In this document: positions 37,731-58,424 of the stretch, piece by piece
Layout of the letters: each line of letters starts with the position of its first letter
Position numbering within the stretch: the first letter of the stretch is position 1
Assembly: GCF_030770395.1 (NCBI RefSeq)
Contig: NZ_CP132480.1
Location: 5,711,217-5,774,747 of the forward strand
Length of the DNA stretch: 63,531 bases
DNA from: Telluria beijingensis
Lineage (GTDB): Bacteria > Pseudomonadota > Gammaproteobacteria > Burkholderiales > Burkholderiaceae_D
Direction: 5' to 3'
Program-made: the position numbers and the translations under genes
Notes under the pieces: generated by a model
Database searches by the model: none
What the model saw: the letters and a program-made list of their open reading frames with translations, nothing else
What the model was told of the DNA's origin: nothing

Positions 37731-37744
37731 TGATCGCGCTAACA
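37731..37744 (+). promoter_or_regulatory. Xylan-regulon operator candidate 1 (GH115)
   Basis: TGATCGCGCTAACA, matching the locus consensus TGNTYGCGCTAACA. Placement just behind the -10 box fits repression by the LacI-type regulator at 45059. Confidence 0.7.
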
Positions 37745-37809
37745 CTAAATGTTATAAACTGTTATTACACTCCGCGATGCACATAATAACTCTGGAGACA
37801 AGGAAGCTC

Positions 37810-40689
37810 ATGACACTGACAATGAAGCTGTTACGGCGCGCGCTGGCGCCATTGGCGGCGCTATGCGCGGTCCTGGCCGCGTCGCCGGCCTGGGCGCTGG
37901 GCGAGCGCCAGTTCGTGCGGTTCGAAGCCGGCGCGAACGCGGTGGTGCTGGCCGCCCAGGGCCGCGCCGCGACCCTGCTGGTCGATCCGAAGGACGACGC
38001 CGGCGTGCGCCGCGCCGTGGCCGAGCTGCAGGGCGACATCGCCCTCGTCAGCGGCGTCAAGCCGGCGTTGACGCAGGCAGCGAGCGCCAAGGGCGACCAC
38101 GTGGTCATCGTCGGCACCCTCGGCCAGAGCGCCCTCGTCGACCGCCTCGCGGCCGAAGGCAAGATCGACGCCGCCGCCATCCGCGGCAAGTGGGAAGGCT
38201 TCCTGATCCAGGCCGTGGCCAATCCGATGCCGGGCGTGGCGCGGGCGCTGGTGGTAGCCGGCAGCGACCGCCGCGGCGCGATCTTCGGCGTCTACACCTT
38301 GTCGGAACAGATCGGCGTCTCGCCCTGGAAGTGGTGGGCCGACGTGGTCCCGGCGCGCCAGGCCGCGCTGGCGGTCCCGATGGACACCAAGGTCAGCGAT
38401 GCGCCGGTGGTGCAGTACCGCGGCATCTTCCTGAACGACGAGGCGCCGGCGCTGACCAACTGGGCCAAGGAGAAATACGGCGGCTTCAACCATCGCTTCT
38501 ACGAGAAGGTGTTCGAGCTGATCCTGCGCCTGCGCGGCAACTACCTGTGGCCGGCGATGTGGCCGCCCGCGGCCTTCTATGCCGACGATCCCGAGAACGG
38601 CAGGCTCGCCCACGAGATGGGCATCGTCATGGGCACGTCGCACCACGAGCCGATGATGCGCGCCCACGACGAATGGGCCCGCTTCGGCAAGGGCCCCTGG
38701 GACTACAGCAAGAATGCGGGCGTGCTGCAGGAGTTCTGGAAGCAGGGCCTGCGCAACTCGCACGGCCAGGACCGCGTGATCACGTTGGGCATGCGCGGCG
38801 ATGGCGACGAGCCGATGTCCGAGGAAGACAATGTCGACCTGCTGGAAAAAATCGTGCGCGACCAGCGCGCGATGATCGCCAAGGATTCCGGCAAGCCCGC
38901 CAGCGAAGTGCCGCAGGTATGGGCGCTGTACAAGGAAGTGCAAGGCTATTACGAGAAGGGCATGCGGGTGCCGGACGACGTGCTGCTGCTGTGGTGCGAC
39001 GACAACTGGGCCAATATCCGCCGCCTGCCGACGCCTGAGGAACGCGCGCGTCCTGGCGGTGCCGGCGTCTACTACCACTTCGACTACGTGGGCGGTCCGC
39101 GCTCCTATAAATGGCTGAACGTGACGCCGATCCCGAAGATCTGGGAACAGATGCACCTGGCCTGGCAGTATGACGCCAAGCGCATGTGGATCGTGAACGT
39201 CGGCGACCTCAAACCCATGGAAGTGCCGATCGAGTTCTTCCTGACCTATGCCTGGAATCCGCAAGCGTGGCCGGCCGAGCGCCTGCCGGAGTACCTGCGC
39301 CTGTGGGCGACGCGCGAATTCGGCGCCGAGCACGCGGTGGAAATCGCCGACCTGGTCGAGCAGTACACGCGCTTCAACGGCCGCCGCAAGCCCGAGCAGC
39401 TCGAGCCGAATACGTATAGCGTCCTGCACTACGACGAGGCCGGCCGCATCGCGCGGGACTACGCGGCGCTGGCCGAACGCGCGAACAAGGTGGCGGCCAG
39501 GCTGCGCCCCGAATTGCGCGACGCCTTCTTCCAGCTGGTGCAGTATCCGGTCGCGGCATCGAGCAATATGAACGAGCTGTACGTGGCGGCCGGCCTGAAC
39601 CAGCATTACGCCACCCAGTTCCGCGCCACCACCAACGACATGGCCGAGCGCGTGCATGCGCTGTACAAGAAAGATACTGAGCTCGCGCGCCAATACCATG
39701 CGATCGGCAACGGCAAGTGGAACCACATGATGTCGCAGACCCGCTTCGGCTACGTCAACTGGGAGCAACCGCGCGCCAATGTGCTGCCGGCCGTGCACCG
39801 GATCGACGTGCCGGCTGGTTCGAACATGTCGGTGGCGGTCGAAGGCGGCGCCAAGGCCTGGGGCGCGTATGGCCTCAAGGCGCTGGACTTGCCGAAGTTC
39901 GATCCGTACGCGAAAAAATCGCACTACCTCGACATCTTCAATCGCGGCAGTGCGCCGTTCGAGTACCGCATCGCGTCGAATCAACCCTGGGTGGTGGTGA
40001 GCCAGGCGAGCGGCAAGGTGACTGGCGAGCAGCGCGTGACGGTCGACGTGCGCTGGGACAAGGTGCCGGCCAAGCCGCAGCCGGCCGTGCTGACGATTAC
40101 CGGGCCGAACGATACGCGCGTGCTGGTCAATGTGCCGCTGCGTGGCAAGGACATGCCCGCGGGCGCCAAGGGCTTCGTCGAGTCCGATGGCGTGGTGTCG
40201 ATCGAGGCCGGTAATTATGCGCGTGCGCTGGCGCCGCAGGGCCGCAGCTGGCTCAAGATCCCGGGCCATGGCCGCACCGATTCCGGCGTGACGACCTTGC
40301 CGGTGACCGCTGCGGCGCTGGACGTGAAGGATGGCATGCGCCTCGAGTACGATGTCAACACCGTCAGCAGCGGCAAGGTGACGCTGCAGGTGACGCTCGC
40401 GCCGACCCTGAAATTCCAGCCGGGTGCGGGCTTCCGCTATGCCGTGTCAATCGACGATGAGGCGCCGCAGATCGTCAACGTGCATGCCGACGAGTCGGAG
40501 AAGTTCTGGGAGAAGATCGTGTCGGATGGCGCAGCCGTGTTCACCACTGAGCACCAGCTGGCCAAGCCGGGCAGGCATGTGCTGAAGTTCTGGGCGCTCG
40601 ATCCGGGCCTGGTGGTGCAGAAGCTGGTGATCGATGCGGGTGGATTGAAGCCGAGCTACCTGGGGCCGGAGCAAAGCCCGCGGCTGTAA
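37810..40689 (+). CDS. Glycoside hydrolase family 115 alpha-glucuronidase, exported
   Basis: Removes (4-O-methyl-)glucuronic acid side chains from xylan polymers and oligomers. The 959-residue product has a signal peptide (ALAPLAALCAVLAASPAWA) and the GH115 core with KYGGFNHRFYEKVFELILRL, NYLWPAMWPPAAFYADD and VNVGDLKPMEVPIEFFL, followed by a C-terminal beta-rich region (LDVRWDKVPAKPQ-like Ig part and carbohydrate-binding-like end). ATG 37810 is chosen at the signal peptide with aggaag upstream; ATG 37822 is possible. First enzyme of the xylan locus, under promoter and operator just upstream. Confidence 0.88.
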   Translation: MTLTMKLLRRALAPLAALCAVLAASPAWALGERQFVRFEAGANAVVLAAQGRAATLLVDPKDDAGVRRAVAELQGDIALVSGVKPALTQAASAKGDHVVIVGTLGQSALVDRLAAEGKIDAAAIRGKWEGFLIQAVANPMPGVARALVVAGSDRRGAIFGVYTLSEQIGVSPWKWWADVVPARQAALAVPMDTKVSDAPVVQYRGIFLNDEAPALTNWAKEKYGGFNHRFYEKVFELILRLRGNYLWPAMWPPAAFYADDPENGRLAHEMGIVMGTSHHEPMMRAHDEWARFGKGPWDYSKNAGVLQEFWKQGLRNSHGQDRVITLGMRGDGDEPMSEEDNVDLLEKIVRDQRAMIAKDSGKPASEVPQVWALYKEVQGYYEKGMRVPDDVLLLWCDDNWANIRRLPTPEERARPGGAGVYYHFDYVGGPRSYKWLNVTPIPKIWEQMHLAWQYDAKRMWIVNVGDLKPMEVPIEFFLTYAWNPQAWPAERLPEYLRLWATREFGAEHAVEIADLVEQYTRFNGRRKPEQLEPNTYSVLHYDEAGRIARDYAALAERANKVAARLRPELRDAFFQLVQYPVAASSNMNELYVAAGLNQHYATQFRATTNDMAERVHALYKKDTELARQYHAIGNGKWNHMMSQTRFGYVNWEQPRANVLPAVHRIDVPAGSNMSVAVEGGAKAWGAYGLKALDLPKFDPYAKKSHYLDIFNRGSAPFEYRIASNQPWVVVSQASGKVTGEQRVTVDVRWDKVPAKPQPAVLTITGPNDTRVLVNVPLRGKDMPAGAKGFVESDGVVSIEAGNYARALAPQGRSWLKIPGHGRTDSGVTTLPVTAAALDVKDGMRLEYDVNTVSSGKVTLQVTLAPTLKFQPGAGFRYAVSIDDEAPQIVNVHADESEKFWEKIVSDGAAVFTTEHQLAKPGRHVLKFWALDPGLVVQKLVIDAGGLKPSYLGPEQSPRL

Positions 40690-40776
40690 TTGGTGTTGGT
40701 GGCTCCGTGGGGTGGACGGGTTCCCCGTCCACGCGTTCAAGCAACGTCTGATTCGCCACGGAGCAGCCACAGAGCC

Positions 40777-40942
40777 TAATGCCGTTAAGTTAAGAGTAGC
40801 CACCACGTCGTTACCTCCACTGAAGGTAACGACTTCCCGCGAAGGCGGGAACCCAAGTTCTGCTAACGTCGTCGAAACGCTCGCAGAATTAGGTTCCCGC
40901 CTTCGCGGGAACGACGGCTTTTACGCTAACTTAACGGCATTA
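40777..40942. mobile_element. 166-bp IS4-type MITE with 11-bp target duplication
   Basis: Terminal inverted repeats TAATGCCGTTAAGTTA at both ends (16 perfect bases), flanked by direct repeats gccacagagcc at 40766-40776 and 40943-40953. No coding capacity. From memory, IS4 ends begin TAATGCCG and IS4 duplicates 11-13 bases, which fits. The interior carries a family C doublet. Confidence 0.8.
40835..40910. repeat. Palindromic doublet, family C, inside the MITE
   Basis: tcccgcgaaggcggga followed by acccaagtt, and the inverted partner ttcccgccttcgcggga. An extra hairpin (gtcgttacct/aggtaacgac) precedes it at 40807-40832; a similar one (gtcgttactg/cagtaacgac) accompanies the family C copy at 63.3 kb. 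Confidence 0.7.
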
Positions 40943-41014
40943 GCCACAGAGCCCGTGTGATTTGAACGCGTGGACGGCGTAGCCGTCCACCCCACCTGGA
41001 GTAACCGGTGAATG

Positions 41015-41053
41015 AAAAAAGGGCAGTCCGCATTATGCGGACTGCCCTTTTTT
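41015..41053. terminator. Bidirectional terminator between GH115 and GH10
   Basis: A perfect 18-bp stem (aaaaaagggcagtccgca with its complement) and a 3-base loop, with A and T runs at both ends, between convergent genes. Confidence 0.92.
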
Positions 41054-41068
41054 GATCGTGATGCGCGA

Positions 41069-42223
41069 TCAGGCTTTACGCATCGGCATCGCGCGCAGCG
41101 AAGCGGCGATCGCTTCGCGCATCGGCTTGGCGCGCAACTGGCTGTCGTACGGCGTCGGACGCTGCGCCAGGCCGTCTGGACGCTTCGCTTCGGCCCAGGT
41201 CTGCAGCCAGTTCACGTGATCAGCCATGCCCCACAACAGGAAATCGCGGCAGGTCGGATAGCTCAGGGTCACATCAAGGTAGTCGCGCGCCAGCGCCGCC
41301 GTGGCGGCGTCGCGCTTGGCGATATCGGCCGGGTAGGCCTTGTCGTTGACGTCGAACTCGGTGATCAACAGGTCCAGCCCCATGCCGGTGACTTCGTCGA
41401 GGAACTTGCGCCATTCGCGCAGCACCGCCGTGTTGGCGGGACCGGACATCATGTCGCCGGCGCTGACGTGGCTTTGCAGGCCCAGCGCGTGGATCGGAGC
41501 GCCGCGCTTCTTCAGGTCGGCCAGCAGTTTCAGCACGCCGGCGCGGTGCTTGGCGTCGTCGCCCAGGCCGGGACCCATGAAGTCGTTGTACACCAGCTGC
41601 GCCTTCGGCGCGTGCTCGTGGGCCTGGCGGAAGGCGAATTCGATCTGCTCGACCGCGCCCATACGCTTGGTGAACACGTTCTCGATCAGGGTGCCGTCTT
41701 TCGGCGACACGGCTTCGTTGACGACGTCGTGGCTGACCACATCCTGGCCCATGTGCGTGCACACGGCCTTGATGTGCTCGCGCAGGATCGCTTCGGCGTG
41801 GCTGACCGGCTTCGATTGCAGGTCCAGCGCATTGACCCAATCCGGCAGCCATTTCGGCGCCTGCCAGATCAGGGTATGGCCGCGGATCGCCATGCCTTCC
41901 TTCCTCGCCCAGGCGAACATCTCGTCGGCCGGGCCCCACTGGTAAGGGCCTGGCTTGGGTTGCAGGGCCTGCCATTTGGTCTCGTTCTCGGCGACGATGA
42001 TATTGCACTCGCGCGCCATCAGGGCGCGGTAGGCCGGGTCGCGGAAACTCTTGCGGGTATCCTGGTCTTCCAGCATGCCCATGGCATTACCGAAGCGCAT
42101 GCCTTTGGCCTTGGCCAGGTCCTTGAGGGCGGGGCCGCCGCCTTGTGCGGCAAACGCCGACGGGGCCAGTGCGGCGCCGGCAGCTACGCCGATCAGTTTC
42201 AGGGTATCGCGTCGCGATGTCAT
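41069..42223 (-). CDS. Endo-1,4-beta-xylanase, GH10, Tat-exported
   Basis: Cleaves the xylan backbone. 384 residues: Tat-type signal (SRRDTLKLIGVAAGAALA), then a GH10 barrel with acid/base E170 in VVSHDVVNEAV and nucleophile E289 in LLITEFDVND; RGHTLIWQAPKWLPDWV and VAENETKW are further family motifs. ATG 42223 is selected because the twin-arginine segment starts there. Third gene after the transporter and GH43 in one reverse operon. Confidence 0.93.
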   Translation of the reverse strand: MTSRRDTLKLIGVAAGAALAPSAFAAQGGGPALKDLAKAKGMRFGNAMGMLEDQDTRKSFRDPAYRALMARECNIIVAENETKWQALQPKPGPYQWGPADEMFAWARKEGMAIRGHTLIWQAPKWLPDWVNALDLQSKPVSHAEAILREHIKAVCTHMGQDVVSHDVVNEAVSPKDGTLIENVFTKRMGAVEQIEFAFRQAHEHAPKAQLVYNDFMGPGLGDDAKHRAGVLKLLADLKKRGAPIHALGLQSHVSAGDMMSGPANTAVLREWRKFLDEVTGMGLDLLITEFDVNDKAYPADIAKRDAATAALARDYLDVTLSYPTCRDFLLWGMADHVNWLQTWAEAKRPDGLAQRPTPYDSQLRAKPMREAIAASLRAMPMRKA

Positions 42224-42251
42224 CGGGTGGTGTCTCCTTGTATTGTGGATC

Positions 42252-43271
42252 TTATGGCTGCCGATATGGCTCGATGGTGACGATCTTGCCGTCGTCGTCG
42301 TAATGCAGTTCCGTGACCTTGACCGAACGCAGGTGGGTGACGCCGCCGGACAGGCTGCTGTCGTGATAGAACAGCCAGCTGCGGCCATCGAATTCGCAGA
42401 TCGAATGGTGGGTGGTCCAGCCGATCACCGGGTTCATGATCCGGCCCTGGTAGGTGAAGGGGCCGTAGGGGCTGTCGCCGGTGGCATAGCACAGGAAGTG
42501 GGTGTCGCCGGTCGAGTACGAGAAGTAGTACTTGCCATTGTGCTTGTGCATCCACGGCCCCTCGAAGTAGCGGCGATCGTGGTCGCCGGCCAGCAGGTCG
42601 TTGCCGTTTTCGTCGAGGATGCGCACCGGGCGCGTCGGCTCGGCGAGTTCCAGCATGTCGCCGCGCAGGCGCCCCACGCGCGGCGCCAGGGCGACTTCGT
42701 GCACCGCAGGTTCTTCGTTCCCGGCGTCGTAGGCGTTGTCGCGGTACTTCTGCAGCTGCCCGCCCCAGATGCCGCCGAAATACAGGTAGAACTCGCCGTC
42801 GTCGTCGCCGAACACGGCCGGGTCGATCGAATAGGTGCCGGCGATCGGCTGCGGCTGCGCCGTGAACGGGCCGGTCGGGCTGTCGCTGATCGCCACGCCG
42901 ATGTGGAAGATGCCGCCGGCTGTCTTGGCCGGGAAGTACAGATAGTACTTGCCATCCTTGCGCACGCAGTCGGGCGCCCACATCTGGCGCTCCGCCCACG
43001 GCACATCGTTCACGTGCAACGCCACCCCATGGTCGACCGCCTTTGCCTCGGGGTGGTCCATCGATACCACGTGATAGTCTTCCATCGCGAAGTGGGCGCC
43101 ATCGTCGTTGAACGGCACGCCGCCCTCGATGTCGTGCGAAGGATAGATGTAGATGCGGCCGTCGAACACGTGGGCCGACGGGTCGGCGAGGTAGATGTGC
43201 TCGAGCAGGGGCGCGGAGATCGCGCGTTCCTTCAGGGATTGCACCTGGTCTTTGTCGATAATTTCTGGCAT
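42252..43271 (-). CDS. GH43 beta-xylosidase/alpha-L-arabinofuranosidase, intracellular
   Basis: 339 residues, no signal peptide. Catalytic residues of the five-bladed propeller are visible: D30 (IYLADPSAHVF), D150 (TYSIDPAVF) and E237 (RYFEGPWMHKH). The GH43 family releases xylose or arabinose from short oligosaccharides. It lies 31 bases after the GPH symporter and 28 before GH10, so oligosaccharides imported by the symporter are its likely substrate. Start chosen at ATG 43271. Confidence 0.88.
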   Translation of the reverse strand: MPEIIDKDQVQSLKERAISAPLLEHIYLADPSAHVFDGRIYIYPSHDIEGGVPFNDDGAHFAMEDYHVVSMDHPEAKAVDHGVALHVNDVPWAERQMWAPDCVRKDGKYYLYFPAKTAGGIFHIGVAISDSPTGPFTAQPQPIAGTYSIDPAVFGDDDGEFYLYFGGIWGGQLQKYRDNAYDAGNEEPAVHEVALAPRVGRLRGDMLELAEPTRPVRILDENGNDLLAGDHDRRYFEGPWMHKHNGKYYFSYSTGDTHFLCYATGDSPYGPFTYQGRIMNPVIGWTTHHSICEFDGRSWLFYHDSSLSGGVTHLRSVKVTELHYDDDGKIVTIEPYRQP

Positions 43272-43302
43272 GAAGATGCTCTGGTTCGGGTTCAGGAAAA
43301 AA

Positions 43303-44793
43303 TCATTGCTGGGCAGCGAGCGCGCGGCGTTCGCCCAGTTCGCGTTCGATCTGCAGCTCGGTGGACTTGCGGATGTCGTAGGCCGCCAGGCAGCACACGG
43401 CCAGCAGGAAGGGGATGGCGGCGTACACGCTGACCGACAGGCGCACGCCATCCGCGACCTGGCCCGACTGGACCGCCTGGGCGGCATCGTAGCCATAGGC
43501 CGACAGCAGGGCAGCCACCAGCGCGCCGCCGATGGAGAGGCCGGCCTTGAGGCCGAAGATCATGGCCGAGAACAGCAGGGCGGTGGCGCGACGATTGTTT
43601 TTCCATTCCGAGTAGTCGGCGACGTCGGCAATCATGGCCCACAGCAGCGGGATCGTGATACCGTAGAAGAAGCCGTACAGGATCTGGGCGCCGAATACCA
43701 TGCCGATCGAGCTCGGGCCGATCCAGTAGTAGCTGAGGCGGAACAGGGCAGCCAGCAGCAGGGCGGCGCCGAACACGTCGCGCTTGCCGAAGCGGTCGGC
43801 CAGCGGCTTCGAGAAACCGATCCCGACGATCATCAGGATGATGCCGACCGCGTTGAACAGGCTGAAGCCCGAGGTGGCGGCGTCTTCCGGCCAGTGGAAC
43901 TTGGTCAGGCCCATATTGGTGAGCACCGAATTGAGGCCGTCGATGAAGGTAAGGAAGCCGACGTTGCTCAGGAAGGCCGCCAGTGCTGCCTCGTCCAGGA
44001 AGTTACGGAAGTAGAAGATGTACATGCCGCCCTTGAGCGACAGCGTGATGAACACCAGGATGGTCAGCACCAGCATCACCACCCAGGGGCGGTTGCGCAG
44101 CAGGTCGGCGACGTCCTGCTTGACGCTCGAGCGCTGGTTCGCGCTGGGGACGATCCGCTCGCGGGTAGTGAAGAAGGTGACCAGGAAGCAGATGGTGCCG
44201 GCGATGGCGAAGAAGATCATCACGGTCTGGAAGCCGGCCACCTTGTCGCCGTCGCCCAGGATCAGCACCAGCGGCAGCAGCAGCACCTGGATCACCAGTT
44301 GCGCGATCAGCACCGCGACGAAGCGATAGGACGACAGGCTGTTGCGGTCGGCCATGCTGCCGGTGAGGACGCCGCTCAGGGCCGAGTAGGGCAGGTTGTT
44401 GGCCGAGTACACCAGCATCAGGAGGATGTAGGTCAGCAGGGCGTAGATGTACTTGCCGCGCTCGCCCAGGTCGGGCGTGCTGAAGGCCAGGATCGCTACC
44501 AGGCCGAACGGCACCGACGTCCACAGGATCCAGGGGCGGAACTTGCCCCAGCGGGTCGAGGTGCGGTCGGCGATGACGCCCATCAGCGGGTTGAAGCAGG
44601 CGCCGACCAGGCCGCCGACGAAGATGATGCTGGCCGCGGCGCTTGGCGAGATCTGGTAGACGTCGGTGTAGAAGAAAGCGAGGAAGGTGAGCAGGGTCTG
44701 GAAGATCAGGTTGGCGGCCAAATCGCCCAGTGCATAGCCGATTTTTTCGGTTGTCCCCAGCGCCGGCTGCGCTTGTATAGTTGTTGTCGTCAT
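43303..44793 (-). CDS. GPH-family sugar:cation symporter (xylo-oligosaccharide/xyloside)
   Basis: 496 residues with twelve membrane spans. The opening KIGYALGDLAANLIFQTLLTF and the motif GVIADRTSTRWGKFRPWIL are typical of the glycoside-pentoside-hexuronide symporters (XynB/XylP/MelB type), as is the central RMIVPS-like cytosolic loop. Located at the inner membrane. As first gene of the operon with GH43 and GH10, xylo-oligosaccharides are the likely cargo. The operator candidate is ~90 bases upstream. Confidence 0.88.
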   Translation of the reverse strand: MTTTTIQAQPALGTTEKIGYALGDLAANLIFQTLLTFLAFFYTDVYQISPSAAASIIFVGGLVGACFNPLMGVIADRTSTRWGKFRPWILWTSVPFGLVAILAFSTPDLGERGKYIYALLTYILLMLVYSANNLPYSALSGVLTGSMADRNSLSSYRFVAVLIAQLVIQVLLLPLVLILGDGDKVAGFQTVMIFFAIAGTICFLVTFFTTRERIVPSANQRSSVKQDVADLLRNRPWVVMLVLTILVFITLSLKGGMYIFYFRNFLDEAALAAFLSNVGFLTFIDGLNSVLTNMGLTKFHWPEDAATSGFSLFNAVGIILMIVGIGFSKPLADRFGKRDVFGAALLLAALFRLSYYWIGPSSIGMVFGAQILYGFFYGITIPLLWAMIADVADYSEWKNNRRATALLFSAMIFGLKAGLSIGGALVAALLSAYGYDAAQAVQSGQVADGVRLSVSVYAAIPFLLAVCCLAAYDIRKSTELQIERELGERRALAAQQ

Positions 44794-44883
44794 TGTCTTG
44801 CCAATCTATGTGTTGAAAAGGCATGCGACCCATGGCCCCGCGGGCGGGGTGGGCCGCTCATGTATCACGCCGGGTGGTAAAAA

Positions 44884-44897
44884 GTTAGCGCAATCAT
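44884..44897 (-). promoter_or_regulatory. Xylan-regulon operator candidate 2 (symporter-GH43-GH10)
   Basis: On the minus strand TGATTGCGCTAACT. A -35/-10 pair TTGACG (44930-44935) and CACAAT (44907-44912), 17 bases apart on the minus strand, places it at or just after the start point. Confidence 0.65.
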
Positions 44898-45018: not shown

Positions 45019-45032
45019 AGTTCGCGCTAACA
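45019..45032 (+). promoter_or_regulatory. Xylan-regulon operator candidate 3 (regulator gene)
   Basis: AGTTCGCGCTAACA, ending 26 bases before the regulator start codon; fits autorepression. Confidence 0.6.
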
Positions 45033-45058
45033 TGCGCGCTGCCCCGAGGTCATCCCGA

Positions 45059-46156: not shown

Positions 46157-46176
46157 AACATCGTCTCCGACGTCTT

Positions 46177-46190
46177 TGGTTGCGCTATCA
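46177..46190 (+). promoter_or_regulatory. Xylan-regulon operator candidate 4 (SGNH esterase)
   Basis: TGGTTGCGCTATCA, 40 bases before the esterase start; one change at position 12 from the consensus. Confidence 0.6.
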
Positions 46191-49847: not shown

Positions 49848-51133
49848 GTCTTTTCGTAGAGGGGTTGTGGCTCGCGCACCAGGGTCCACAGCAGCACGGC
49901 CGCGATCAGGTCCAGCACCGCGAGGCTGACGAAGAAGGGCGTGTAGCCGACGCTGGCCAGCAGGGTGCCGATGAGCAGCGAGAAGATGAGCAGGCCCAGG
50001 TTGCCGAAAGTGCCGCACATGCCGGCGACTGTCGCGACCTCATTGCGCCGGAACAGGTCGGACGACATCGTGATGACGGTGACCGACAGGGTCTGGTGCG
50101 CGAAGCCGGCCAGGCTGAGGAGGGCGATTGCGGCGTAGGCATTGTCGACATAGCCGACGAAGGCCACGCCCATCATCATGATGGCGCCGAGCGTGAACGC
50201 GCCGCGCCGGGCATTGATCAGGCGCACGCCGCGCTTTTGTAGGGCCAGCACCACCACCGGTCCGAACATGCAGCCCAGGTCGGCCGCCAGGAAGGGCAGC
50301 CAGGCGAACATGGCGATGTCCTTCAGCTCGAAGCCGCGCACCGTGGTCAGATACAGCGGCACCCAGAACGCCAGCGTGCCCCAGGCCGGATCGGCCAGGA
50401 AGCGCGGCAGGGCGATGCCCCAGAAATTGCGTTTCTTGAGGATGCTGAGCACGGACGGCTTGCTGCCGTCGCTGGCCAGGTGGTCTTCCTGGCCGGCGGC
50501 GATGTGCGCTGCCTCCTCTTTCGAGAGGCGGCGGTGGCGCTTCGGCGCGTCGTACAGCAGCAGCCAGGCGCACACCCACACCAGCCCGAGGGCGCCGGTG
50601 ATGACGAAGGCCGATTGCCAGTTGTAGTGCAGGATGGCCCACACCACCAGCGGCGGCGCTAGCATCGAGCCGAACGAGGCCCCGATATTGAAGACGCCGC
50701 CGGCCAGGCCGCGCTCCTTGGCCGGGAACCATTCGGACACCGCCTTCATGCCGGCCGGGTTGGCCGAGCCTTCGGCGAAGCCGAGCAGGCCGCGCAGGAT
50801 AGCCAGGGTCTGCCAGTTGGTGGCCATGCCATGCGCCATGCAGATCAGCGACCAGGCGGTGGCGAAGATCGCGAAGCCGTATTTAAGGCCGATCACGTCG
50901 AGCACATAGCCGCACAGCGGCTGCAGCATGATCGCCCCCTGGAAGGCGGCCGTGATGTACGAATACTCCTTGGCCGTGATGTCCAGTTCCGCCAGCAGGG
51001 TGGGGGCGGCCACCGCCAGCGAGCTGCGGGTCAGGTAGTTGACCACCGCGCCCAGCATGATCAGGCTGATCATCCACCAGCGCAGGCCGCGGATGGTGCC
51101 GCCGCGGGTCCGGCCAAGGATTGCCGCGATCAT
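49844..51133 (-). CDS. MFS transporter, anion:cation (hexuronate/ExuT-like) family
   Basis: 429 residues with twelve predicted spans. The opening [28 protein letters not shown] and the motif [29 protein letters not shown] belong to the ACS family of sugar-acid importers (ExuT, GudP, GarP). Between glucarate dehydratase and GH67 partners, glucuronate or glucarate is the probable substrate. ATGA overlaps at both ends show tight coupling. Confidence 0.88.
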
Positions 51134-52500
51134 GGATTGACCATGCTGGGGCGCTTCGGATCGTAGGTCCAGTCGGGCACCAGGTAGCGCATCGCCAGCG
51201 CATCGTCGCGCGCGCCGCCGGCCACCTTCTTGTACAGTTCATGGGCCGCGTTGATCTGGTCCATGTCGGGCTCGATGCCCAGGCCCGGACGGTCCGGCAC
51301 AGCCACCTGGCCGCCGACGATCTGCAAGGGTTCCGTCGTCAGGCGTTCGCGGCCTTCCTGCCAGATCCAGTGGGTGTCGATCGCCGTGATTGCGCCCGGC
51401 GCCGCCGCCGCGCAATGGGTGAACATCGCCAGCGAGACGTCGAAGTGGTTGTTCGAATGCGAGCCCCAGGTCAGGCCCCAGTCGTGGCACAACTGGGCCA
51501 GGCGCACCGAACCCTGCATGGTCCAGAAGTGTGGATCGGCCAGCGGGATGTCCACCGCGCCCAGCAGGTGCGAATGGGCCATCTGGCGCCAGTCGGTGGC
51601 GACCATATTGGTGGCAGTGCGAATGCCGGTGGCGCGCTTGAACTCGGCCATGATCTCGCGGCCCGAATAACCGCCCTCGGGGCCGCACGGATCTTCGGCA
51701 TAGGCCAGCAGGTGGCCCTGGCCACGGCAGGCGTCGATCGCCTCGCGCAGCGACCAGGCGCCGTTCGGATCGAGCGTCACGCCGGCATCGGGGAAGCGGC
51801 GCTTGATGGCGGCCACCGCCGCCATCTCGTCCTCGGCCCGCATCACGCCGCCCTTGAGCTTGAAGTCCTTGAAGCCATACTTGTCGACCGCCGCCGCGGC
51901 CATGTCGCCGATCGATTCGGCGCTGAGCGCTTCTTCGTTGCGAACCCGGTACCAGCCGTCGCGGCCCGCATCGTCGTCGTAGCCCAGGTCGGTGCGGCCG
52001 CGGTCGCCGATATAGAACAGGTAGGCCAGCATTGGCACGTGGCTGCGTTGCTGGCCGTCGCCCAGCAGCTCGCACAGCGGCAGGCCCAGGAACTGGCCGA
52101 ACAGGTCGAGCAGGGCCGCCTCGACCGCCGTCACCACGTTTTCCAGGCGCAGGTTGATTTCGTGCGGCTGCTTCATTACCGCCGCTTCGGCGCTGGACGT
52201 GACTTGGTGGCTCACGCCCGAAATGGCGGCGCGCAGCCGGTTCAGGGTGCGGCGGTGATGGGCGATCTGGCTGCCTTCCACCAGCGGCACCAGCTTTTGC
52301 AGGGCCAGCAGGATGCCGTTCGAGCCGGGCACCTCGCCCATGCCAGTGCGGCCGGCACTGTCGCGCAGCAGCACCAGGATGCGGGTGAAGTAGGGCGCAT
52401 GCGCGCCGCACAGGTTGAGCAGCATGCTGTCGCGGCCGGCGACCGGAATCACCTGCATTTCGACGATGGTCGGGGTGGCGGCGCTTTGAATCGGGTTCAT
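51130..52500 (-). CDS. gudD: Glucarate dehydratase
   Basis: Enolase-superfamily enzyme converting D-glucarate to 5-dehydro-4-deoxy-D-glucarate. The 456 residues carry the K-x-K base (FKDFKLKGG), metal ligands in [16 protein letters not shown] and TNMVATD, and the His-Asp dyad [13 protein letters not shown], all as in GudD; length also fits (E. coli ~446). In this operon it would handle glucuronate released by GH67/GH115 after oxidation to glucarate. No uronate dehydrogenase is visible in the window. Confidence 0.92.
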
Positions 52501-52543
52501 CTACACAATCTCCAGAATGAATCGGGCAAAGAGGGCGGTCCGG

Positions 52544-54721
52544 TCAGATGCCCGGGGCATACGGGAAGCGGATCGACTTGTAGTGCTCCAGCGAGTGCGC
52601 GGGCTTGCGCGCGCCGGCCGGCAGCGGCAGGCCGGAGACATCCTGGAAATAGGCCAGGCTGGCGTCGCGCCACCAGATCGCCTCGGCGTGCTGCTGGGCC
52701 AGGCGCTGCGCGGTGTCGGCAAAGCGTTGGGCGTCGACCAGCGGTTGCAGGCGCTGCCATTCGGCCTGCATCGCGGCGGCTTCGGCCACGCCGTGGTCGT
52801 AGCGCGCCACCAGTTCTTCCCACAGCGTGCGGCCGGACGCCATGCGGTAATCCCACGGCAGGCGGTGGAACCACAGCAGCAGTTGGGGCGGCGTCGTTTT
52901 CGGATCGGCGAAGCGGCGCGCCACCTCGGGCGCATACTGGGCCACGGCATTGCTGCCGCTGGCGGTGCGGTCGAAGCCGATGCCGTCGCGGGCGGCGCGG
53001 TGGTAGTAGATCGGATTCCAGTCGGCGCGTTCAAGGTTGTCGACCCAGGGCGCCGGACCATGGTGGTGGCTGCTGCCCATCACGTGGTTCAGGCCGAGCG
53101 GCGTCATGTAGTCGACCACGGCTTCGCGCGAACGCATCATGAGGTTGACGACCGGGTCCAGCAGGCGCGCGTCCGGGCTGAAGGTCTGGGCGGTCCACTC
53201 GCGCGCGATGGCGCGGCTGTCCAGGCCCTGGTCCCAGGCCATGCGGCCATACATATACCAGTTGGCCTGGTCGAAGATGGAACCGCTCCAGCTGCGGCTG
53301 CTGCCGATATTGGCCACGCCCGCGATGCCGCCCACGCGGCCCTGCTTGCCCTGGATGGTGTCGGCAACGGTCAGCTTGCGGTTGCCGATGCGGGTATCGA
53401 ACTCCAACGTCTCCTGGAACATCGGGCCCAGGTAGGCCAGGTGGGTGGCGAAGCCCAGGTACTCCTTGGTGATCTGGAATTCCATGATCAGCGGTGTCTT
53501 CGGCATGGCGCCGAACATCGGGTGGGCGGGTTCGCGCGGCTGGAAGTCGATCGCGCCGTTCTTCACCTGCACCAGCACGTTGTCGTCGAACTTGCCGTCC
53601 AGCGGGATGAACTGGTCATAGCCCTCGACCGCGCGGTCGTGCGCCTTGCCGGCCTTCGATTCCTCGGGCGAGGCGTAGACGAAGGCGCGCCACATCACGA
53701 TGCCCTTGTGCGGCGCCACCGCGCGCGCCAGCATATTGGCGCCGTCGGCGTGGTTGCGGCGATAGTCCTGCGGGCCGGGCTGGCCTTCCGAATTGGCTTT
53801 TACCAAAAAACCGCCGAAGTCGGGAATGGTGCGGTAGATCTCGTCGGCCTTGTTCTTCCACCAGGCGGCGACTTCGGGGTCGAGCGGATCGGCGGTCTTC
53901 GTCTGCTTCATCTCGAGCGGGGTCGACCAGCGCACCGACAGGTAGACGCGGATGCCGTAAGGGCGCAGCACGTCGGCGATGGCCGCAGCCTTGGCGATGA
54001 AGGGCGCGCCCAGCACCTCGGCCTTGGAGTTCACGTTATTGAGCACCGTCCCGTTGATCCCCAGCGATGCGTTCGCCCGGGCGTAGTCGGTATAGCGTGG
54101 ATCGATGATGTGCGGCAGTTCCCACCAGTTCCAGATCGACTCGCCGGCATAGCCGCGTTCCACGGTGCGATCGAGGTTGTCCCAGTGGTTCAGTACGCGC
54201 AGGGGCAGGGTCGGCTGCGAGGCGAGCGTGATCTTGTCGGCGCTAGTGCCCAGCTGCAGCTGGCGCAGCCAGGCGAAGCTGCCGTACAGCAGGCCGGCGT
54301 CGCCATTGGCCGCGACCAGGGTGACCGGCACGCCGTCCAGCGTCGCGCGCCGCACCAGATAGCCTTCGGCCCCCAGTTTCTTCAGCTGCGTGCGCACCGC
54401 CGCTGCGGCATCGAGGCCGGCCGGCAGGTCGGCGCCGCGCGCCAGCACCAGGGTATTGGCGCGCGCCCGCTCGACGATGGCCGGGGCCTTGCCCATCAGG
54501 CCCTGCAGGCCGCGCTGCAGTTCGGCGCGCGCGGCGTTTGTCGTGGGGGTGGCGGCGCCGAGGGTCAGGATGGCGTCGGCGACGCCTGCGCGCTGGGCGT
54601 CGGGAAGGGGTTGATAGCGCAACCACAGCTGGTAGCCATCTTCCGCGGCGGCATGGGTCGGCAAGCACAGCAGCATGCCGAGAAGAAACGCGGTCCAAAG
54701 CCGCCCGAAAAGTCGCTGCAT
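52544..54721 (-). CDS. aguA: Alpha-glucuronidase, GH67, exported
   Basis: Releases 4-O-methyl-glucuronate from the non-reducing end of short xylo-oligosaccharides. 725 residues with a signal peptide (TAFLLGMLLCLPTHAAA), an N-terminal domain, and the GH67 barrel containing GGFLVKANSEGQPGPQDY and GIVMWRAFVY with DRAVEGYDQF. ATG 54721 is chosen by ggagaca upstream and the signal start. First gene of the operon GH67-gudD-MFS-GH43, ordered for side-chain removal, uptake and xylose release. Confidence 0.93.
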   Translation of the reverse strand: MQRLFGRLWTAFLLGMLLCLPTHAAAEDGYQLWLRYQPLPDAQRAGVADAILTLGAATPTTNAARAELQRGLQGLMGKAPAIVERARANTLVLARGADLPAGLDAAAAVRTQLKKLGAEGYLVRRATLDGVPVTLVAANGDAGLLYGSFAWLRQLQLGTSADKITLASQPTLPLRVLNHWDNLDRTVERGYAGESIWNWWELPHIIDPRYTDYARANASLGINGTVLNNVNSKAEVLGAPFIAKAAAIADVLRPYGIRVYLSVRWSTPLEMKQTKTADPLDPEVAAWWKNKADEIYRTIPDFGGFLVKANSEGQPGPQDYRRNHADGANMLARAVAPHKGIVMWRAFVYASPEESKAGKAHDRAVEGYDQFIPLDGKFDDNVLVQVKNGAIDFQPREPAHPMFGAMPKTPLIMEFQITKEYLGFATHLAYLGPMFQETLEFDTRIGNRKLTVADTIQGKQGRVGGIAGVANIGSSRSWSGSIFDQANWYMYGRMAWDQGLDSRAIAREWTAQTFSPDARLLDPVVNLMMRSREAVVDYMTPLGLNHVMGSSHHHGPAPWVDNLERADWNPIYYHRAARDGIGFDRTASGSNAVAQYAPEVARRFADPKTTPPQLLLWFHRLPWDYRMASGRTLWEELVARYDHGVAEAAAMQAEWQRLQPLVDAQRFADTAQRLAQQHAEAIWWRDASLAYFQDVSGLPLPAGARKPAHSLEHYKSIRFPYAPGI

Positions 54722-54781
54722 AGATTGTCTCCGTTGTTTTTTGGTCTCGAATGTTTGTTTTGTATCATTCGAGTGCAAGAA

Positions 54782-54795
54782 TGTTAGCGCGAACC
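54782..54795 (-). promoter_or_regulatory. Xylan-regulon operator candidate 5 (GH67 operon)
   Basis: Minus strand GGTTCGCGCTAACA, 61 bases upstream of the GH67 start. Confidence 0.65.
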
Positions 54796-54926
54796 TTTTC
54801 GATTTGAAAGCGTTTTATTGGACTGCCCACTGTGGAAGTAGGGGCTGCGACAGGCCGTGCAGGGGCTGGAGGGGCGGAATTCAATAGCGCTACCATTCGC
54901 GCTTTACCAACGTTCGGAATATTTTG

Positions 54927-54956
54927 TTGACAATCATTATTTTTGACCAGTAGACT
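54927..54956 (+). promoter_or_regulatory. Sigma70 promoter of the TonB-dependent receptor gene
   Basis: TTGACA at 54927-54932 and TAGACT at 54951-54956, 18 bases apart. The operator follows 4 bases after, covering the start point, the same geometry as at GH115. The receptor mRNA would have a ~275-base leader. Confidence 0.7.
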
Positions 54957-54960
54957 GGGA

Positions 54961-54974
54961 TGGTTGCGATAACA
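54961..54974 (+). promoter_or_regulatory. Xylan-regulon operator candidate 6 (receptor)
   Basis: TGGTTGCGATAACA, one change at position 9 from the consensus, immediately behind the -10 box. Confidence 0.65.
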
Positions 54975-55036
54975 TTCGTGTTAGTAGAAATGTTCGCAAT
55001 CAGTGCTCGAAGTAAAAAAATAACGAGGAGATAAGC

Positions 55037-55171
55037 ATGCAACACACCGACGTCACCGCACGTCCGGCCCTGCCATGTGGCGGCCGCATCCCCCGAATAT
55101 CCGCTCCGGCCGTCAGGCCGGCGTCACCGACCCCGCGCCGAGCGCGTCCCACGGGGTCGGTCCAGGACTGA
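55037..55171 (+). CDS. Putative 44-residue leader ORF in the receptor mRNA leader
   Basis: ATG with a strong, well-spaced GAGGAG (55025-55030), then 44 codons rich in Arg and Pro, ending TGA. Its 3' end overlaps a hairpin with a perfect 10-bp stem (accgaccccg at 55126-55135 and its complement at 55152-55161). The true receptor start has its own AGGAG at 55229. No homology is recognised. It could be a regulatory leader or a chance ORF behind a stray ribosome binding site. Confidence 0.4.
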   Translation: MQHTDVTARPALPCGGRIPRISAPAVRPASPTPRRARPTGSVQD

Positions 55172-55240
55172 CCTGCCTACCCATCAGACAACCGTAGAAG
55201 GTTGCTTACCTAGAAATAGAAAACCATCAGGAGACATTGA

Positions 55241-58200
55241 ATGACTCGACATGCTCAACAACAAGGTGTAGCACGCCGGCGCCAGTGGGCGCTCGGCCTG
55301 ACCGTACTGGCCGGCCTGGTCCACCAGGCCTATGCGCAGGACACGACTGCGACGACGACGACCGGCACCACCCCGGATGCCGCCGTCAGCGTGGTGAAGG
55401 TGACCGGCTACCGCGGCAGCCTGCTGGCGTCCGCCCGCGACAAGAAAGAAGCGGTCGGATTCCAGGACACCATCAGTTCGGAAGACATGGGTAAATTCCC
55501 GGACAAGAACATCGCCGAATCGCTGGCCCGCATCCCGGGCGTCCAGATTTCGCGCGACGTGACGGGCGAGGGCATGAACGTCCAGATCCGCGGCCTGGGA
55601 TCGAGCTTCACCAAGGTCTTGCTGAACAATGCGCAGATCGCGGTCGCTTCGTCGGGCCCGATCGACGGCGCCAGCACCAACCGCGAGATCGACCTCGACC
55701 TGCTGCCGACCGAACTGTTCACCAAGCTGACCGTCAGCAAGAGCCCGAATGCTTCGCAGCTCGAGGGCGGCGCGGCCGGTGTCGTCAACCTGCGCAGCGC
55801 CCGTCCGTTCGACAAGGAAGGCGCCTACGTCGTCTACAATGCGACCGCGCAGAAGCAGGAAATCGCCAACGACGTCGGCGGCCGCGGTTCGATCCTGGCC
55901 AGCAAGACCTGGGGCGACAAGTTCGGTATCCTGGGCGGCGTATATTACAACCGCCAGAAAGCCCGCACCACCGGCTACGAGACGGTCGGCCTGACCAATG
56001 CCAACCTGTCGGCGGCGCAGAACGGCCTGCCGTCGCGTAACAATACCGGCGGCGGCAACTGGACGATTCCGGCCACCGTGCCGAATGGCGCCGGCGCGGG
56101 CCTGATCCCGGGCACCGTCATTAACCAGGCCTTCCTGGAAAGCCGCAACCCGGGCACCAGCATCACCGCGATCGACAACGCGCTGGTGCCGCGCCTCGGC
56201 CGCTACATGGACTACTATGGCAACCGCGACAAGGCCGCGGCTATCCTCAGCGCCGAATACCGTCCGACCGAGAACCTGCACTTCTACGTCGACACGCTGT
56301 ACAGCGAAAAAGACGACGACATGGCGCGCATCGCCTACACCTGGGCCATGCGCAACGAGTTCGCCATCCCGCTCGACATGAAAGTCGACCGCGCCGACTG
56401 CAGCGCCGGTTGTACGGCCACCAGCGGCACCTTCGCCAATGCGCGCTACTTCATCGAATACGGCCCGCGTCGCGACAAGACCAAGCTCAAGGGCATCAAT
56501 CCAGGGATGACCTGGCAGATCGCCCCGACCCTGAAGCTCGAAGCGCAGGCCAATGCGACCAAGTCGGACTTCTCGCACGAAGCGCCGACCGTCATGCCGA
56601 TCACCGCGGCCGGCAGCGGCCTGGTGGCGAGCTATGACGCCACCAATGGCGGCGTGCCCAGCATCACCTTCAACAATGACGTGAACAACCCGGCCAACCT
56701 CGGGTGGGCCGGCGGCCGCGTCAACATCCAGAACGAGTTGCGCGAAACCAGCACCAAGGGCTTCCATACCGACCTGACCTGGGGCGACAACAAGCTGAAC
56801 CTGAAGCTGGGTTATGCCTACGACGACATCGACCGCCGTATCCGCGGCCAGGACAACTCGGCCGCCTGGCAGGCTGCGGTGTGCGGCAACAATCCGAGCG
56901 TGTTCCTGCAAGGCCCGAACGGCGCGCCGCCGTGCGACGGCGCCAACACGCCAGGCGCCAGCGCCGCCGCGCTCTATCCTGGCTATGGCACCGGCTTCAC
57001 CGCCGGCCAGAACACGCCGCTGACCTATGGCGGCTCGCTGATCCCGGCCAACGCGCTGGCCGGCTACCTGGTGCCCGGCGAGTACGGCCGCCTGGTGGTC
57101 GACTGGGACCGCTTTAAAAAGGATTCGAACTACGACTACTACAACACGACGGCGCCGGATTCGACCAGTTCGTCGACCGGGGCGAGCGCCGGCTATATGC
57201 GCGAGAAGACCTCGGGCTTCTACACCGAGATCAACGGCTCGACCCTGCTCGCGAACATGCCGTTCCGCTATAACGCCGGCGTGCGTTATGTGCGCACCAA
57301 GCAGGAAGTCGGCTCGCTGAACTCGTTCAGCGACCCACGCAACGCCAGCCTGACGCTGAACGGTTCCAAGTACCCGAACGCGACCCAGTGGCAGTATGTG
57401 GACAACACCTACAACAACACGCTGCCATCGGGTACCGCCGCCCTGACGGTCGCCAACAACGTCATCGTGCGCGCCGCGGCGTCGAAGAGCATGACCCGCG
57501 CCAATCCGAACTCGCTGCGTCCCGGCATCAACTTCAGCTCGGTGTCGGCCGACGTCGGCACCATCGGCAGCCCGGAACTGACGCCATACATCTCGAAGAA
57601 CCTGGACTTCGGCGTCGACTGGTACACCGGCGGCGAAGGCTATGTGAGCCTGACCGTATTCCAGAAGAAGCTCAAGGGCTTCACCGTGATCGAGAACCGC
57701 ACGCTGCCGTTCAGCGCGCTGGAGCAGTATGGCGTCACCTATGCCAACCTGATTCCGAACCAGCAGGCGGCGATCGACGCGCGCGGCGGTCCGGGCGCGG
57801 CGACGGTGGTGATGAGCCAGGAACGCAATGCCGGCGGCATCCTGCGCATCCGCGGCCTGGAGATCGGCTGGGTCCAGCCGCTCGACCGCTTCCTGCCGAT
57901 CAAGGGCTTCGGCTTCAGCGAGACCGCGACCCTGATCAACCAGAACGCCAGCGGCGAAGGCACCAACGGCTTCGTGGCGCTGAACGTGCCACGCAAGAGC
58001 AACAACTTCGGCGTCTACTACGAGAACCACGGCTTCATGGCGCGTTTCTCGCACACCTACCGCGAAGGCAGCCAGGCAGCCAACGGTGGCCAGAACGGCA
58101 TCGCGGCCGCTGCCCTGTATGGCCGCGCCTACAAGCAGGCCGACTTCTCGTCGAGCGTGGACCTCGAGCAGGTGCTGGACCGCGACGGCTGGCCGACCAT

Positions 58201-58324
58201 CACCTTCGACGTCGTCAACATCAACAAGGCCAAGCGCGATTCGTACTTCCAGTTCGAGAGCGCGCAGTTCGGCTTCTACGATCCGGGCCGCACCTTCCAG
58301 CTCGGCATCCGCGGTCAGTTCTAA
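55241..58324 (+). CDS. TonB-dependent receptor for xylan oligosaccharides
   Basis: 1027-residue outer-membrane transporter. Signal peptide (WALGLTVLAGLVHQAYAQD), plug with DKNIAESLARIPGVQISRD and VQIRGLGSSFTKVLLNN, and a large barrel ending in TFQLGIRGQF with terminal aromatic residue. The class is that of the carbohydrate-utilisation receptors (IPR010104-like), distinct from the siderophore receptor at 4.2-6.4 kb. Position between the GH67 operon and xylXBCD and its operator make xylo- or glucuronoxylo-oligosaccharides the probable cargo. Confidence 0.9.
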   Translation: MTRHAQQQGVARRRQWALGLTVLAGLVHQAYAQDTTATTTTGTTPDAAVSVVKVTGYRGSLLASARDKKEAVGFQDTISSEDMGKFPDKNIAESLARIPGVQISRDVTGEGMNVQIRGLGSSFTKVLLNNAQIAVASSGPIDGASTNREIDLDLLPTELFTKLTVSKSPNASQLEGGAAGVVNLRSARPFDKEGAYVVYNATAQKQEIANDVGGRGSILASKTWGDKFGILGGVYYNRQKARTTGYETVGLTNANLSAAQNGLPSRNNTGGGNWTIPATVPNGAGAGLIPGTVINQAFLESRNPGTSITAIDNALVPRLGRYMDYYGNRDKAAAILSAEYRPTENLHFYVDTLYSEKDDDMARIAYTWAMRNEFAIPLDMKVDRADCSAGCTATSGTFANARYFIEYGPRRDKTKLKGINPGMTWQIAPTLKLEAQANATKSDFSHEAPTVMPITAAGSGLVASYDATNGGVPSITFNNDVNNPANLGWAGGRVNIQNELRETSTKGFHTDLTWGDNKLNLKLGYAYDDIDRRIRGQDNSAAWQAAVCGNNPSVFLQGPNGAPPCDGANTPGASAAALYPGYGTGFTAGQNTPLTYGGSLIPANALAGYLVPGEYGRLVVDWDRFKKDSNYDYYNTTAPDSTSSSTGASAGYMREKTSGFYTEINGSTLLANMPFRYNAGVRYVRTKQEVGSLNSFSDPRNASLTLNGSKYPNATQWQYVDNTYNNTLPSGTAALTVANNVIVRAAASKSMTRANPNSLRPGINFSSVSADVGTIGSPELTPYISKNLDFGVDWYTGGEGYVSLTVFQKKLKGFTVIENRTLPFSALEQYGVTYANLIPNQQAAIDARGGPGAATVVMSQERNAGGILRIRGLEIGWVQPLDRFLPIKGFGFSETATLINQNASGEGTNGFVALNVPRKSNNFGVYYENHGFMARFSHTYREGSQAANGGQNGIAAAALYGRAYKQADFSSSVDLEQVLDRDGWPTITFDVVNINKAKRDSYFQFESAQFGFYDPGRTFQLGIRGQF

Positions 58325-58344
58325 CCTGACTGCGTCGTGATAAT

Positions 58345-58377
58345 CCCTAAGCCTGCCGCGATGCGGCAGGCTTAGGG
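58345..58377 (+). terminator. Perfect hairpin after the receptor gene
   Basis: A 15-bp stem (ccctaagcctgccgc and complement) with a 3-base loop, 20 bases after the stop; no T run, so it may act by protecting the 3' end as well as terminating. Confidence 0.7.
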
Positions 58378-58410
58378 AAGCGAATTCCAGGCAAGATGGC
58401 CGGATACCGA

Positions 58411-58424
58411 TGATTGCGTTAACA
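58411..58424 (+). promoter_or_regulatory. Xylan-regulon operator candidate 7 (xylXBCD)
   Basis: TGATTGCGTTAACA, one change at position 9 from the consensus, 83 bases before xylX. Confidence 0.65.

What the first reader, a model, noticed from the sequence alone, without database searches (positions are those of the whole stretch)
37731..58424. A seven-site operator set that defines the xylan regulon from sequence alone
Aligned by eye in one orientation, seven 14-mers share TGNTYGCGCTAACA, with positions 2, 4, 6-8, 10, 11 and 13 invariant: 37731-37744 (GH115), 44884-44897 minus (symporter-GH43-GH10), 45019-45032 (LacI gene), 46177-46190 (SGNH esterase), 54782-54795 minus (GH67 operon), 54961-54974 (TonB receptor), 58411-58424 (xylXBCD). 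Each sits 27-280 bases before one of the seven transcription units of the locus. At GH115 and the receptor it lies 4-6 bases behind a TTGACA/-10 pair, the position of a repressor site. It resembles, from memory, the xylose-responsive boxes of Caulobacter and Xanthomonas (TGTTAGCGCTAACA, TGGTAGCGCTAACA). The binding protein is probably the LacI regulator at 45059.
Basis: partly seen in the sequence, partly recalled or inferred. Interest (0 to 1): 0.82.

Follow-up and report, generated by a model that had tools for sequence, protein, structure and literature searches.

The report
Lopsided xylan repressor operators in Massilia
A set of short DNA switches appears to tell a soil bacterium when to make its xylan-digesting machinery; the set is real, reaches a second distant gene cluster, and has an unusual lopsided shape shared with related bacteria.

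Summary
All seven 14-mers exist (the symporter site is 44883-44896, one base off), and an eighth copy lies inside the 5' end of GH67 (54612-54625). A pattern built from the seven has 12 hits in the 6.0-Mb Massilia-like genome: 8 here, 3 around a second xylR paralogue with xylB, xylFG and an aldehyde dehydrogenase, 1 unexplained. It fits a LacI-family XylR regulon wider than the window, which two paralogues could bind. New: the operator is not the palindromic xyl-box. At the third base from the centre one half has T, the other A/G, in 92 of 102 Massilia sites (0 with T on both), whereas 61 of 76 sites near alpha/gammaproteobacterial relatives have T on both. The composite operator-N4-TGTTA occurs in 33 of 36 xylR-bearing Massilia genomes and 0 of 26 others. 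Sites of the symmetric class were never within 20 kb of xylR (0 of 100). Most likely mechanism: sugar-relieved repression over the transcription start, with asymmetry separating XylR from other LacI regulators. Binding, inducer and insulation are inferred. A new variant of a known kind.

The parts
37731..37744 (+). operator TGATCGCGCTAACA before GH115
44883..44896 (-). operator TGATTGCGCTAACT before symporter-GH43-GH10
   Evidence: finding gave 44884-44897
45019..45032 (+). operator AGTTCGCGCTAACA before xylR-A
46177..46190 (+). operator TGGTTGCGCTATCA before the SGNH esterase
54612..54625 (-). eighth operator copy TGGTTGCGCTATCA inside the 5' end of GH67; candidate auxiliary operator
   Evidence: same 14 bases in 4 distinct window-type sequences, with a rare TTG Leu codon
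54782..54795 (-). operator GGTTCGCGCTAACA before the GH67 operon
54961..54974 (+). operator TGGTTGCGATAACA before the TonB receptor
58411..58424 (+). operator TGATTGCGTTAACA before xylXBCD
37696..37725 (+). TTGACA-N18-TATACT promoter of GH115
   Evidence: read; same layout
54927..54956 (+). TTGACA-N18-TAGACT promoter of the TonB receptor
   Evidence: read; module consensus
37750..37754 (+). downstream TGTTA, spacer of 5 instead of 4
   Evidence: read
54979..54983 (+). downstream TGTTA of the composite
58429..58433 (+). downstream TGTTA of the composite
45059..46156 (+). LacI-family regulator, here called XylR-A
   Evidence: Pfam LacI 68.2 bits, cut-off 27
37810..40689 (+). GH115
   Evidence: longer frame; start
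41069..44793 (-). symporter (MFS_2), GH43, GH10 operon
46231..47538 (+). SGNH/GDSL esterase; start uncertain (46360)
48204..54721 (-). GH67, glucarate dehydratase, MFS, GH43 operon; GH67 start 54721 read by eye (54676)
55241..58324 (+). TonB-dependent receptor (Plug domain)
58507..63248 (+). xylX, xylB, xylC, xylD
   Evidence: xylB over its NCBIfam cut-off

Best explanation
The sites are operators of a LacI-family xylose/xylan regulator (XylR). Without inducer a XylR dimer sits on the 14-mer, which in the best promoters covers about +1 to +14 behind a TTGACA-N18-TAGACT pair, and blocks the operons for xylan uptake and breakdown and for xylose/glucuronate oxidation, and xylR itself; xylose or a xylo-oligosaccharide releases it. 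The same operator covers a second locus about 3.3 Mb away (xylR-B, xylB, a xylose ABC transporter, and an aldehyde dehydrogenase that is a candidate for the last step that xylXBCD lacks), so two paralogues probably share one set of operators. In Oxalobacteraceae the operator is a steady asymmetric variant of the LacI-type palindrome: one half keeps T, the other has A/G, at the third base from the centre. Shown: sites, genome distribution, asymmetry, conservation, co-occurrence with XylR. Inferred: binding, repression, inducer, transcription start, that asymmetry is read outside the recognition helix (the hinge is my guess), and that it keeps XylR apart from LacI paralogues with symmetric sites.
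For: 12 genome places of the window-derived pattern, 11 in two xylan/xylose loci. Asymmetry: Massilia 92 mixed / 10 A-G on both / 0 T-T of 102; other Oxalobacteraceae 28 / 7 / 1 of 36; Alpha/Gamma 61 T-T of 76. Composite operator-N4-TGTTA: 46 places in 33 genomes, all among the 36 with XylR, none in 26 without; reversed pattern 0. TGNTTGCGNTAACA within 20 kb of xylR in 36 of 36 genomes; TGNTAGCGNTAACA 0 of 100 places. Shared promoter layout in 34 distinct copies. MTVSR recognition-helix residues in 76 of 80 related loci, alpha and beta.
Against: No binding or expression data. 10 of 102 Massilia sites have A/G on both halves. 81 of the 131 TGNTTGCGNTAACA places in XylR genomes lie farther than 20 kb from xylR, and 10 lie in 7 genomes without it; their genes were not examined, so other LacI proteins may use this class too. 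Three XylR genomes lack the exact composite (G033, G043, G058). One of 12 places in the own genome has no fitting neighbour. The TGTT repeats downstream are unexplained. Counts are not corrected for relatedness, and the T5/A5 patterns were chosen after the first loci had been seen.
Confidence: 0.85

Rival explanations
1. The sites are ordinary imperfect copies of the symmetric proteobacterial xyl-box, and the asymmetry is tolerated drift without meaning.
For: LacI-family dimers tolerate imperfect operators (established knowledge); 10 of 102 Massilia sites have A/G on both halves.
Against: Independent halves would give about 21 T/T sites of 102 in Massilia; none was seen, while the same scan finds 61 of 76 T/T near alpha/gamma relatives. 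All 100 symmetric-class places in the genus lie farther than 20 kb from xylR, or on another contig.
Confidence: 0.2
2. The asymmetric site is bound by a heterodimer of XylR with another LacI-family protein, each taking one half.
For: Two halves of constant, different sequence; 14 LacI proteins in this genome.
Against: 29 of the 36 XylR genomes have a single copy of at least 64% identity, and 27 of those carry the composite, so the second XylR is not needed; a more distant LacI partner is not excluded. Heterodimers are not the rule in this family (recalled).
Confidence: 0.08
3. The direction and asymmetry come from overlap with the promoter or with a second regulator's site (TAACA-N4-TGTTA), not from XylR.
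For: 34 of 56 distinct sites examined share the -10 box, operator and TGTTA in one order.
Against: The other 22 sites, taken with a pattern that itself demands C/T at position 5, lack TGTTA; more tellingly, the unbiased scan counts promoter-less and autoregulatory sites too, and they are mixed as well.
Confidence: 0.12
4. The sites belong to a LacI-family protein other than the two XylR paralogues.
For: 14 LacI proteins in the genome; no binding shown.
Against: The composite tracks XylR in 62 genomes (33 of 36 against 0 of 26; Fisher p 1.7e-14, relatedness not corrected), and sites lie upstream of xylR in both loci.
Confidence: 0.06

Closest known systems
XylR / xyl-box regulon of Xanthomonas and Caulobacter (LacI family)
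   Same: LacI-type regulator, 14-bp site with central CG, xylan/xylose and TonB-receptor genes as targets (passages of PMC7748154, PMC10380989, PMC1790865).
   Different: The xyl-box TGGTAGCGCTAACA has A at position 5; here it is C/T in 8 of 8 window sites, and the asymmetry holds across Oxalobacteraceae. Orthology with the named XylR proteins was not tested.
XylR-like LacI proteins of sphingomonads and Caulobacter relatives (unannotated loci L058-L110)
   Same: 49-60% identical; sites before GH67, xylX and other sugar genes.
   Different: Mostly symmetric T/T sites (61 of 76); by eye the site lies nearer to the -35 box than in Massilia.
CytR of E. coli (LacI family, unusual operators)
   Same: A LacI-family member whose operator departs from the usual fixed palindrome (passages of PMC3454398).
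   Different: CytR varies the spacing of its half-sites and works with CRP; here spacing is fixed and the difference is one base pair.
lac O1 and Cra/FruR sites (recalled, no call)
   Same: Naturally asymmetric operators of LacI-family proteins.
   Different: Recalled only; no clade-wide switch from symmetric to asymmetric is known to me.

Membership tests
LacI-family transcription factor (protein at 45059) | LacI HTH plus periplasmic-binding-protein-like domain | tested here: met
   PF00356 68.2 bits (cut-off 27), PF13377 116.7 bits
LacI-type operator | even palindrome with central CG | tested here: inconclusive
   central CG in 8 of 8 window sites; outer bases near-palindromic, third base from the centre systematically not
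xyl-box (TGGTAGCGCTAACA) | symmetric TAGCGCTA core | tested here: not met
   C/T instead of A at position 5 in 8 of 8 window sites and T/T in 0 of 102 Massilia sites; so it works like a xyl-box but is not one in the strict sense
XylR regulon | sites before xylose/xylan genes and the regulator gene | tested here: met
XylR regulon | regulator orthologous to Caulobacter/Xanthomonas XylR | not tested
   a MAG labelled Caulobacter has a 52% identical LacI (L084), but the named XylR proteins were not fetched
XylR regulon | repression released by xylose | not testable with these tools
   needs a bench test
Oxidative (Weimberg) xylose pathway | xylX, xylB, xylC, xylD and a 2-oxoglutarate-semialdehyde dehydrogenase | tested here: inconclusive
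   xylB over its NCBIfam cut-off; X, C, D by Pfam and gene order; dehydrogenase only a candidate at the second locus, under NCBIfam cut-offs

The most novel reading that the evidence does not exclude
In Oxalobacteraceae XylR has become a LacI-family repressor with an obligatorily asymmetric operator: its dimer reads one T half and one A/G half. The change happened about once, near the branch between the alpha and beta XylR clades, with the MTVSR recognition-helix core unchanged, and sets XylR apart from the symmetric sites of its LacI paralogues by a single base pair. Asymmetry gives the operator a direction, and a fixed promoter module with further half-sites near +19 and +30 is built on that direction.
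Probability: 0.38. Interest if true: 0.66.

Novelty: new variant of a known kind. Interest (0 to 1): 0.5.

Why it matters
It turns a by-eye motif into a nearly noise-free genome-wide regulon for xylan use in Massilia and predicts an unlinked transporter and a candidate last enzyme for the pathway. It also makes a general question testable: how paralogous LacI regulators in one cell avoid each other's operators. Here a one-base asymmetry, with the same recognition-helix core, separates two classes of sites over dozens of genomes.

Tried and rejected
Heterodimer of the two XylR paralogues: not needed, 27 of 29 genomes with a single copy (of at least 64% identity) have the composite.

Recognition helix as the cause of asymmetry: residues MTVSR are found in 76 of 80 loci (3 gave no helix, 1 picked another stretch). 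The alignment cannot show this, because its rows were chosen by a pattern that contains those residues. There the clades differ at hinge positions 51 and 55 (LacI numbering, recalled) but also at many others, and one alpha row (L106) has N before the hinge Leu and T/T sites, so no residue is named as the determinant.

Constant orientation relative to the gene: among Oxalobacteraceae sites with a T and a non-T half, 21 point with the only gene within 300 bp, 12 against, 23 are ambiguous (with the looser site list), so it is no rule. In this genome 10 of 11 point towards the gene I assigned; the exception is 2447067.

RNA hairpin TAACA-N4-TGTTA at the transcript start: considered; no compensatory change noticed by eye; not folded. 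DNA looping: operator spacings upstream of xylR are 88-89 bp (11 pairs), 99-100 (8), 136-137 (5) and 91, 119, 201 (one each); not enough to claim.

One search was only partly usable: its list is cut at 100 rows, and two places that fit without mismatch (2454891 minus, 5765828 minus) are missing from its zero-mismatch rows. I cannot say why; counts rest. One search's column-shuffle control at 11.5 bits was too loose and was repeated at 15 and 18 bits.

Literature: the listings showed no title or abstract start about XylR operators in Massilia or Oxalobacteraceae; most subscription journals are not held. The Caulobacter expression paper PMC344409 is not held.
Full report
WHAT WAS CLAIMED AND WHAT IS THERE. 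The seven 14-mers exist; the symporter site is at 44883-44896. The invariant positions are right. A matrix from the seven finds them and one more (54612-54625, minus, inside the 5' end of GH67) at 18.6-21.6 bits; the next best place in the window has 12.9. At 18 bits 60 column-shuffled matrices find on average 0.07 places, at most 3, against 8. The promoters of GH115 and the TonB receptor are as described.

GENOME SCAN. The window lies in a single contig of 6,017,275 bases. The nearest named relative found is Massilia arenae (LacI 92% identical; the tool may leave out still nearer records). DGDTYGCGNTAWCW occurs 12 times: 8 here, 3 at 2447067, 2448401 and 2454891, 1 at 4637475 (its locus holds a DUF4011 protein and a GMP-synthase C-terminal-domain protein); the reversed pattern occurs once. 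The pattern was fitted to the window, so the 8 are not independent evidence; the other 4 are. The second locus holds a LacI 67-68% identical to the window's, xylB (NCBIfam D-xylose 1-dehydrogenase, 419.1 bits, cut-off 400), xylF and xylG (over cut-off), a permease, and a 525-aa aldehyde dehydrogenase with a site 109 bp upstream pointing at it, 74 bp from a divergent gene. Its solved relatives at E 1e-30 or better are two NADP-type aldehyde dehydrogenases (1eyy, 3v4c; the NADP note for 1eyy is recalled); NCBIfam lists 2,5-dioxovalerate dehydrogenase first, far below cut-off (98.8 of 750 bits). None of the six genes called in the 9.5 kb right of xylXBCD is an aldehyde dehydrogenase. The GH67 operon encodes a glucarate dehydratase (nearest solved chain 3nxl, E 2.5e-226). 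By recalled pathway knowledge the oxidative xylose route and the glucarate route both end in 2-oxoglutarate semialdehyde, so the unlinked gene is a natural candidate for a shared last step.

ASYMMETRY. A palindrome of this kind reads TGKTAGCGCTAACA; all eight window sites have C or T at position 5. For an unbiased test I scanned loci around XylR relatives with a half-site model that ignores the third base from the centre, kept intergenic sites within 400 bp of a called gene start, and removed exact duplicates. Massilia: 102 sites, 92 with T on one half and A/G on the other, 10 A/G on both, 0 T on both (independence expects 50.5, 30.7, 20.7). Other Oxalobacteraceae: 36 sites, 28 / 7 / 1. Roseateles and similar: 3, all A/G on both. 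Alpha/Gamma: 76 sites, 61 T/T, 5 mixed, 4 A/G on both, 6 with C. Genes were called by my own simple caller, which misses genes and truncates some starts; related strains remain in the sets.

CO-OCCURRENCE. Of 62 genomes of the genus 36 have a XylR-like LacI (43 loci of at least 64% identity used). TGNTTGCGNTAACA: 141 places, 131 in XylR genomes and 10 in 7 others; 50 within 20 kb of xylR, in all 36 genomes; reversed-pattern control 9. TGNTAGCGNTAACA: 100 places (one palindrome counted once), 95 in XylR genomes, none within 20 kb of xylR; control 14. So one base separates the xylR-linked class from the rest. The 81 distant T5 places were not annotated. In the own genome the symmetric sites looked at lie by another LacI gene, by shikimate-kinase-type genes (gluconokinase-like in my reading), TonB receptors and a lactonase.

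PROMOTER MODULE. TGRTYGCGNTAACA-N4-TGTTA has 46 places in 33 genomes, all among the 36, none in the other 26; reversed pattern none. Of 56 distinct sites examined 34 carry TGTTA at +19; they share TTGACA-N18-TTAGACT-GGAA-operator-TTTC-TGTTA-NNN-GAATGTT. TGTTANNNGAATGTT occurs at 26 places in 22 genomes, 22 of them beside a composite by coordinates; control 3. In the window the receptor and xylX carry the exact composite, GH115 one with a longer spacer, and xylX lacks a clear -35/-10 pair. What binds the TGTT repeats is unexplained; extra XylR half-sites are a guess.

WHICH REGULATOR. The MTVSR helix residues are found in 76 of 80 loci, in alpha and beta alike. A quick tree of 89 XylR rows (24 of them from the 50 Alpha/Gamma loci; the others were lost to truncated gene starts) puts alpha and beta rows on two sides of a branch with 99% SH-aLRT; over 63 labelled rows the operator type needs 5 changes, shuffled mean 21.0. 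T/T labels lie on the alpha side only, mixed labels on the beta side only; 7 of 8 A/G-A/G labels are beta. So the switch happened about once at this level; the root is unknown. 29 of 36 genomes have one XylR copy and 27 of these the composite.

WORKING MODEL. Shown: sites, conservation, co-occurrence. Inferred: XylR occupies the operator over the transcription start and is released by a xylose sugar; both paralogues share the sites; asymmetry is read outside the helix core and insulates XylR. The intragenic eighth site is kept in four distinct window-type sequences through a TTG Leu codon (5% of Leu in the window's genes) where most other GH67 genes listed use CTG, but it lies in a conserved protein motif, so it is only a candidate.

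KNOWN OR NEW. The kind of regulon is known: xyl-box TGGTAGCGCTAACA in Xanthomonas (passages), a 20-bp palindrome in Caulobacter (passage). A survey of LacI-family regulons calls their motifs palindromes; a term search of its main text found no XylR and no word beginning asymmetr (PMC4052901). The asymmetric variant with its module did not turn up in the eight paper searches named under Tried and rejected.

Noticed in passing
L033, L035, L038, L039, L043, L044, L047 near 9880-9910; own genome L145 9549: The palindrome GAAATCGATTTC lies exactly 23 bp (centre to centre) from a XylR operator in 7 of 16 Massilia loci scanned; its only exact place in the own genome is beside another LacI gene and a TonB receptor. 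It may be the operator of a second LacI regulator that shares the GH10/GH67 promoter in relatives.
   Followed up: partly
L142 5206-6783 (G000:C1 2453205-2454782): Aldehyde dehydrogenase of 525 aa with its own XylR-type site, candidate last enzyme for the xylXBCD and glucarate routes.
   Followed up: partly
window 51130-52500: Glucarate dehydratase between GH67 and an MFS gene, suggesting that glucuronate from xylan is oxidised through glucarate.
   Followed up: partly
G000:C1:3787234-3787383 (L149 6235-6384): Tandem array with period 17 whose units contain TGCTGGCGCTAACA or TGCACGCGCTAACA; it resembles the operator only by chance as far as I can tell.
   Followed up: no
L143 8703; L144 7544 and 7710; L146 8092 (own genome): Symmetric LacI-type sites (T on both halves) by shikimate-kinase-type genes, a lactonase and another LacI gene: probably a separate, gluconate-like regulon.
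   Followed up: partly
upstream of xylR in Massilia loci and the window (44883 and 45019): Pairs of operators with spacings of 88-89, 99-100 or 136-137 bp, 24 of 27 spacings measured.
   Followed up: partly
G000, G005, G020, G035, G059: The window-type LacI (91% or more) is in 5 of 62 genomes, each of which also has the second paralogue; 70-75% identical relatives sit in xylan loci of other genera, so the window locus may have moved between genera.
   Followed up: partly
window 45032: An in-frame ATG at the last base of the operator 45019-45032 would lengthen the LacI frame upstream of the start used here (45059).
   Followed up: no
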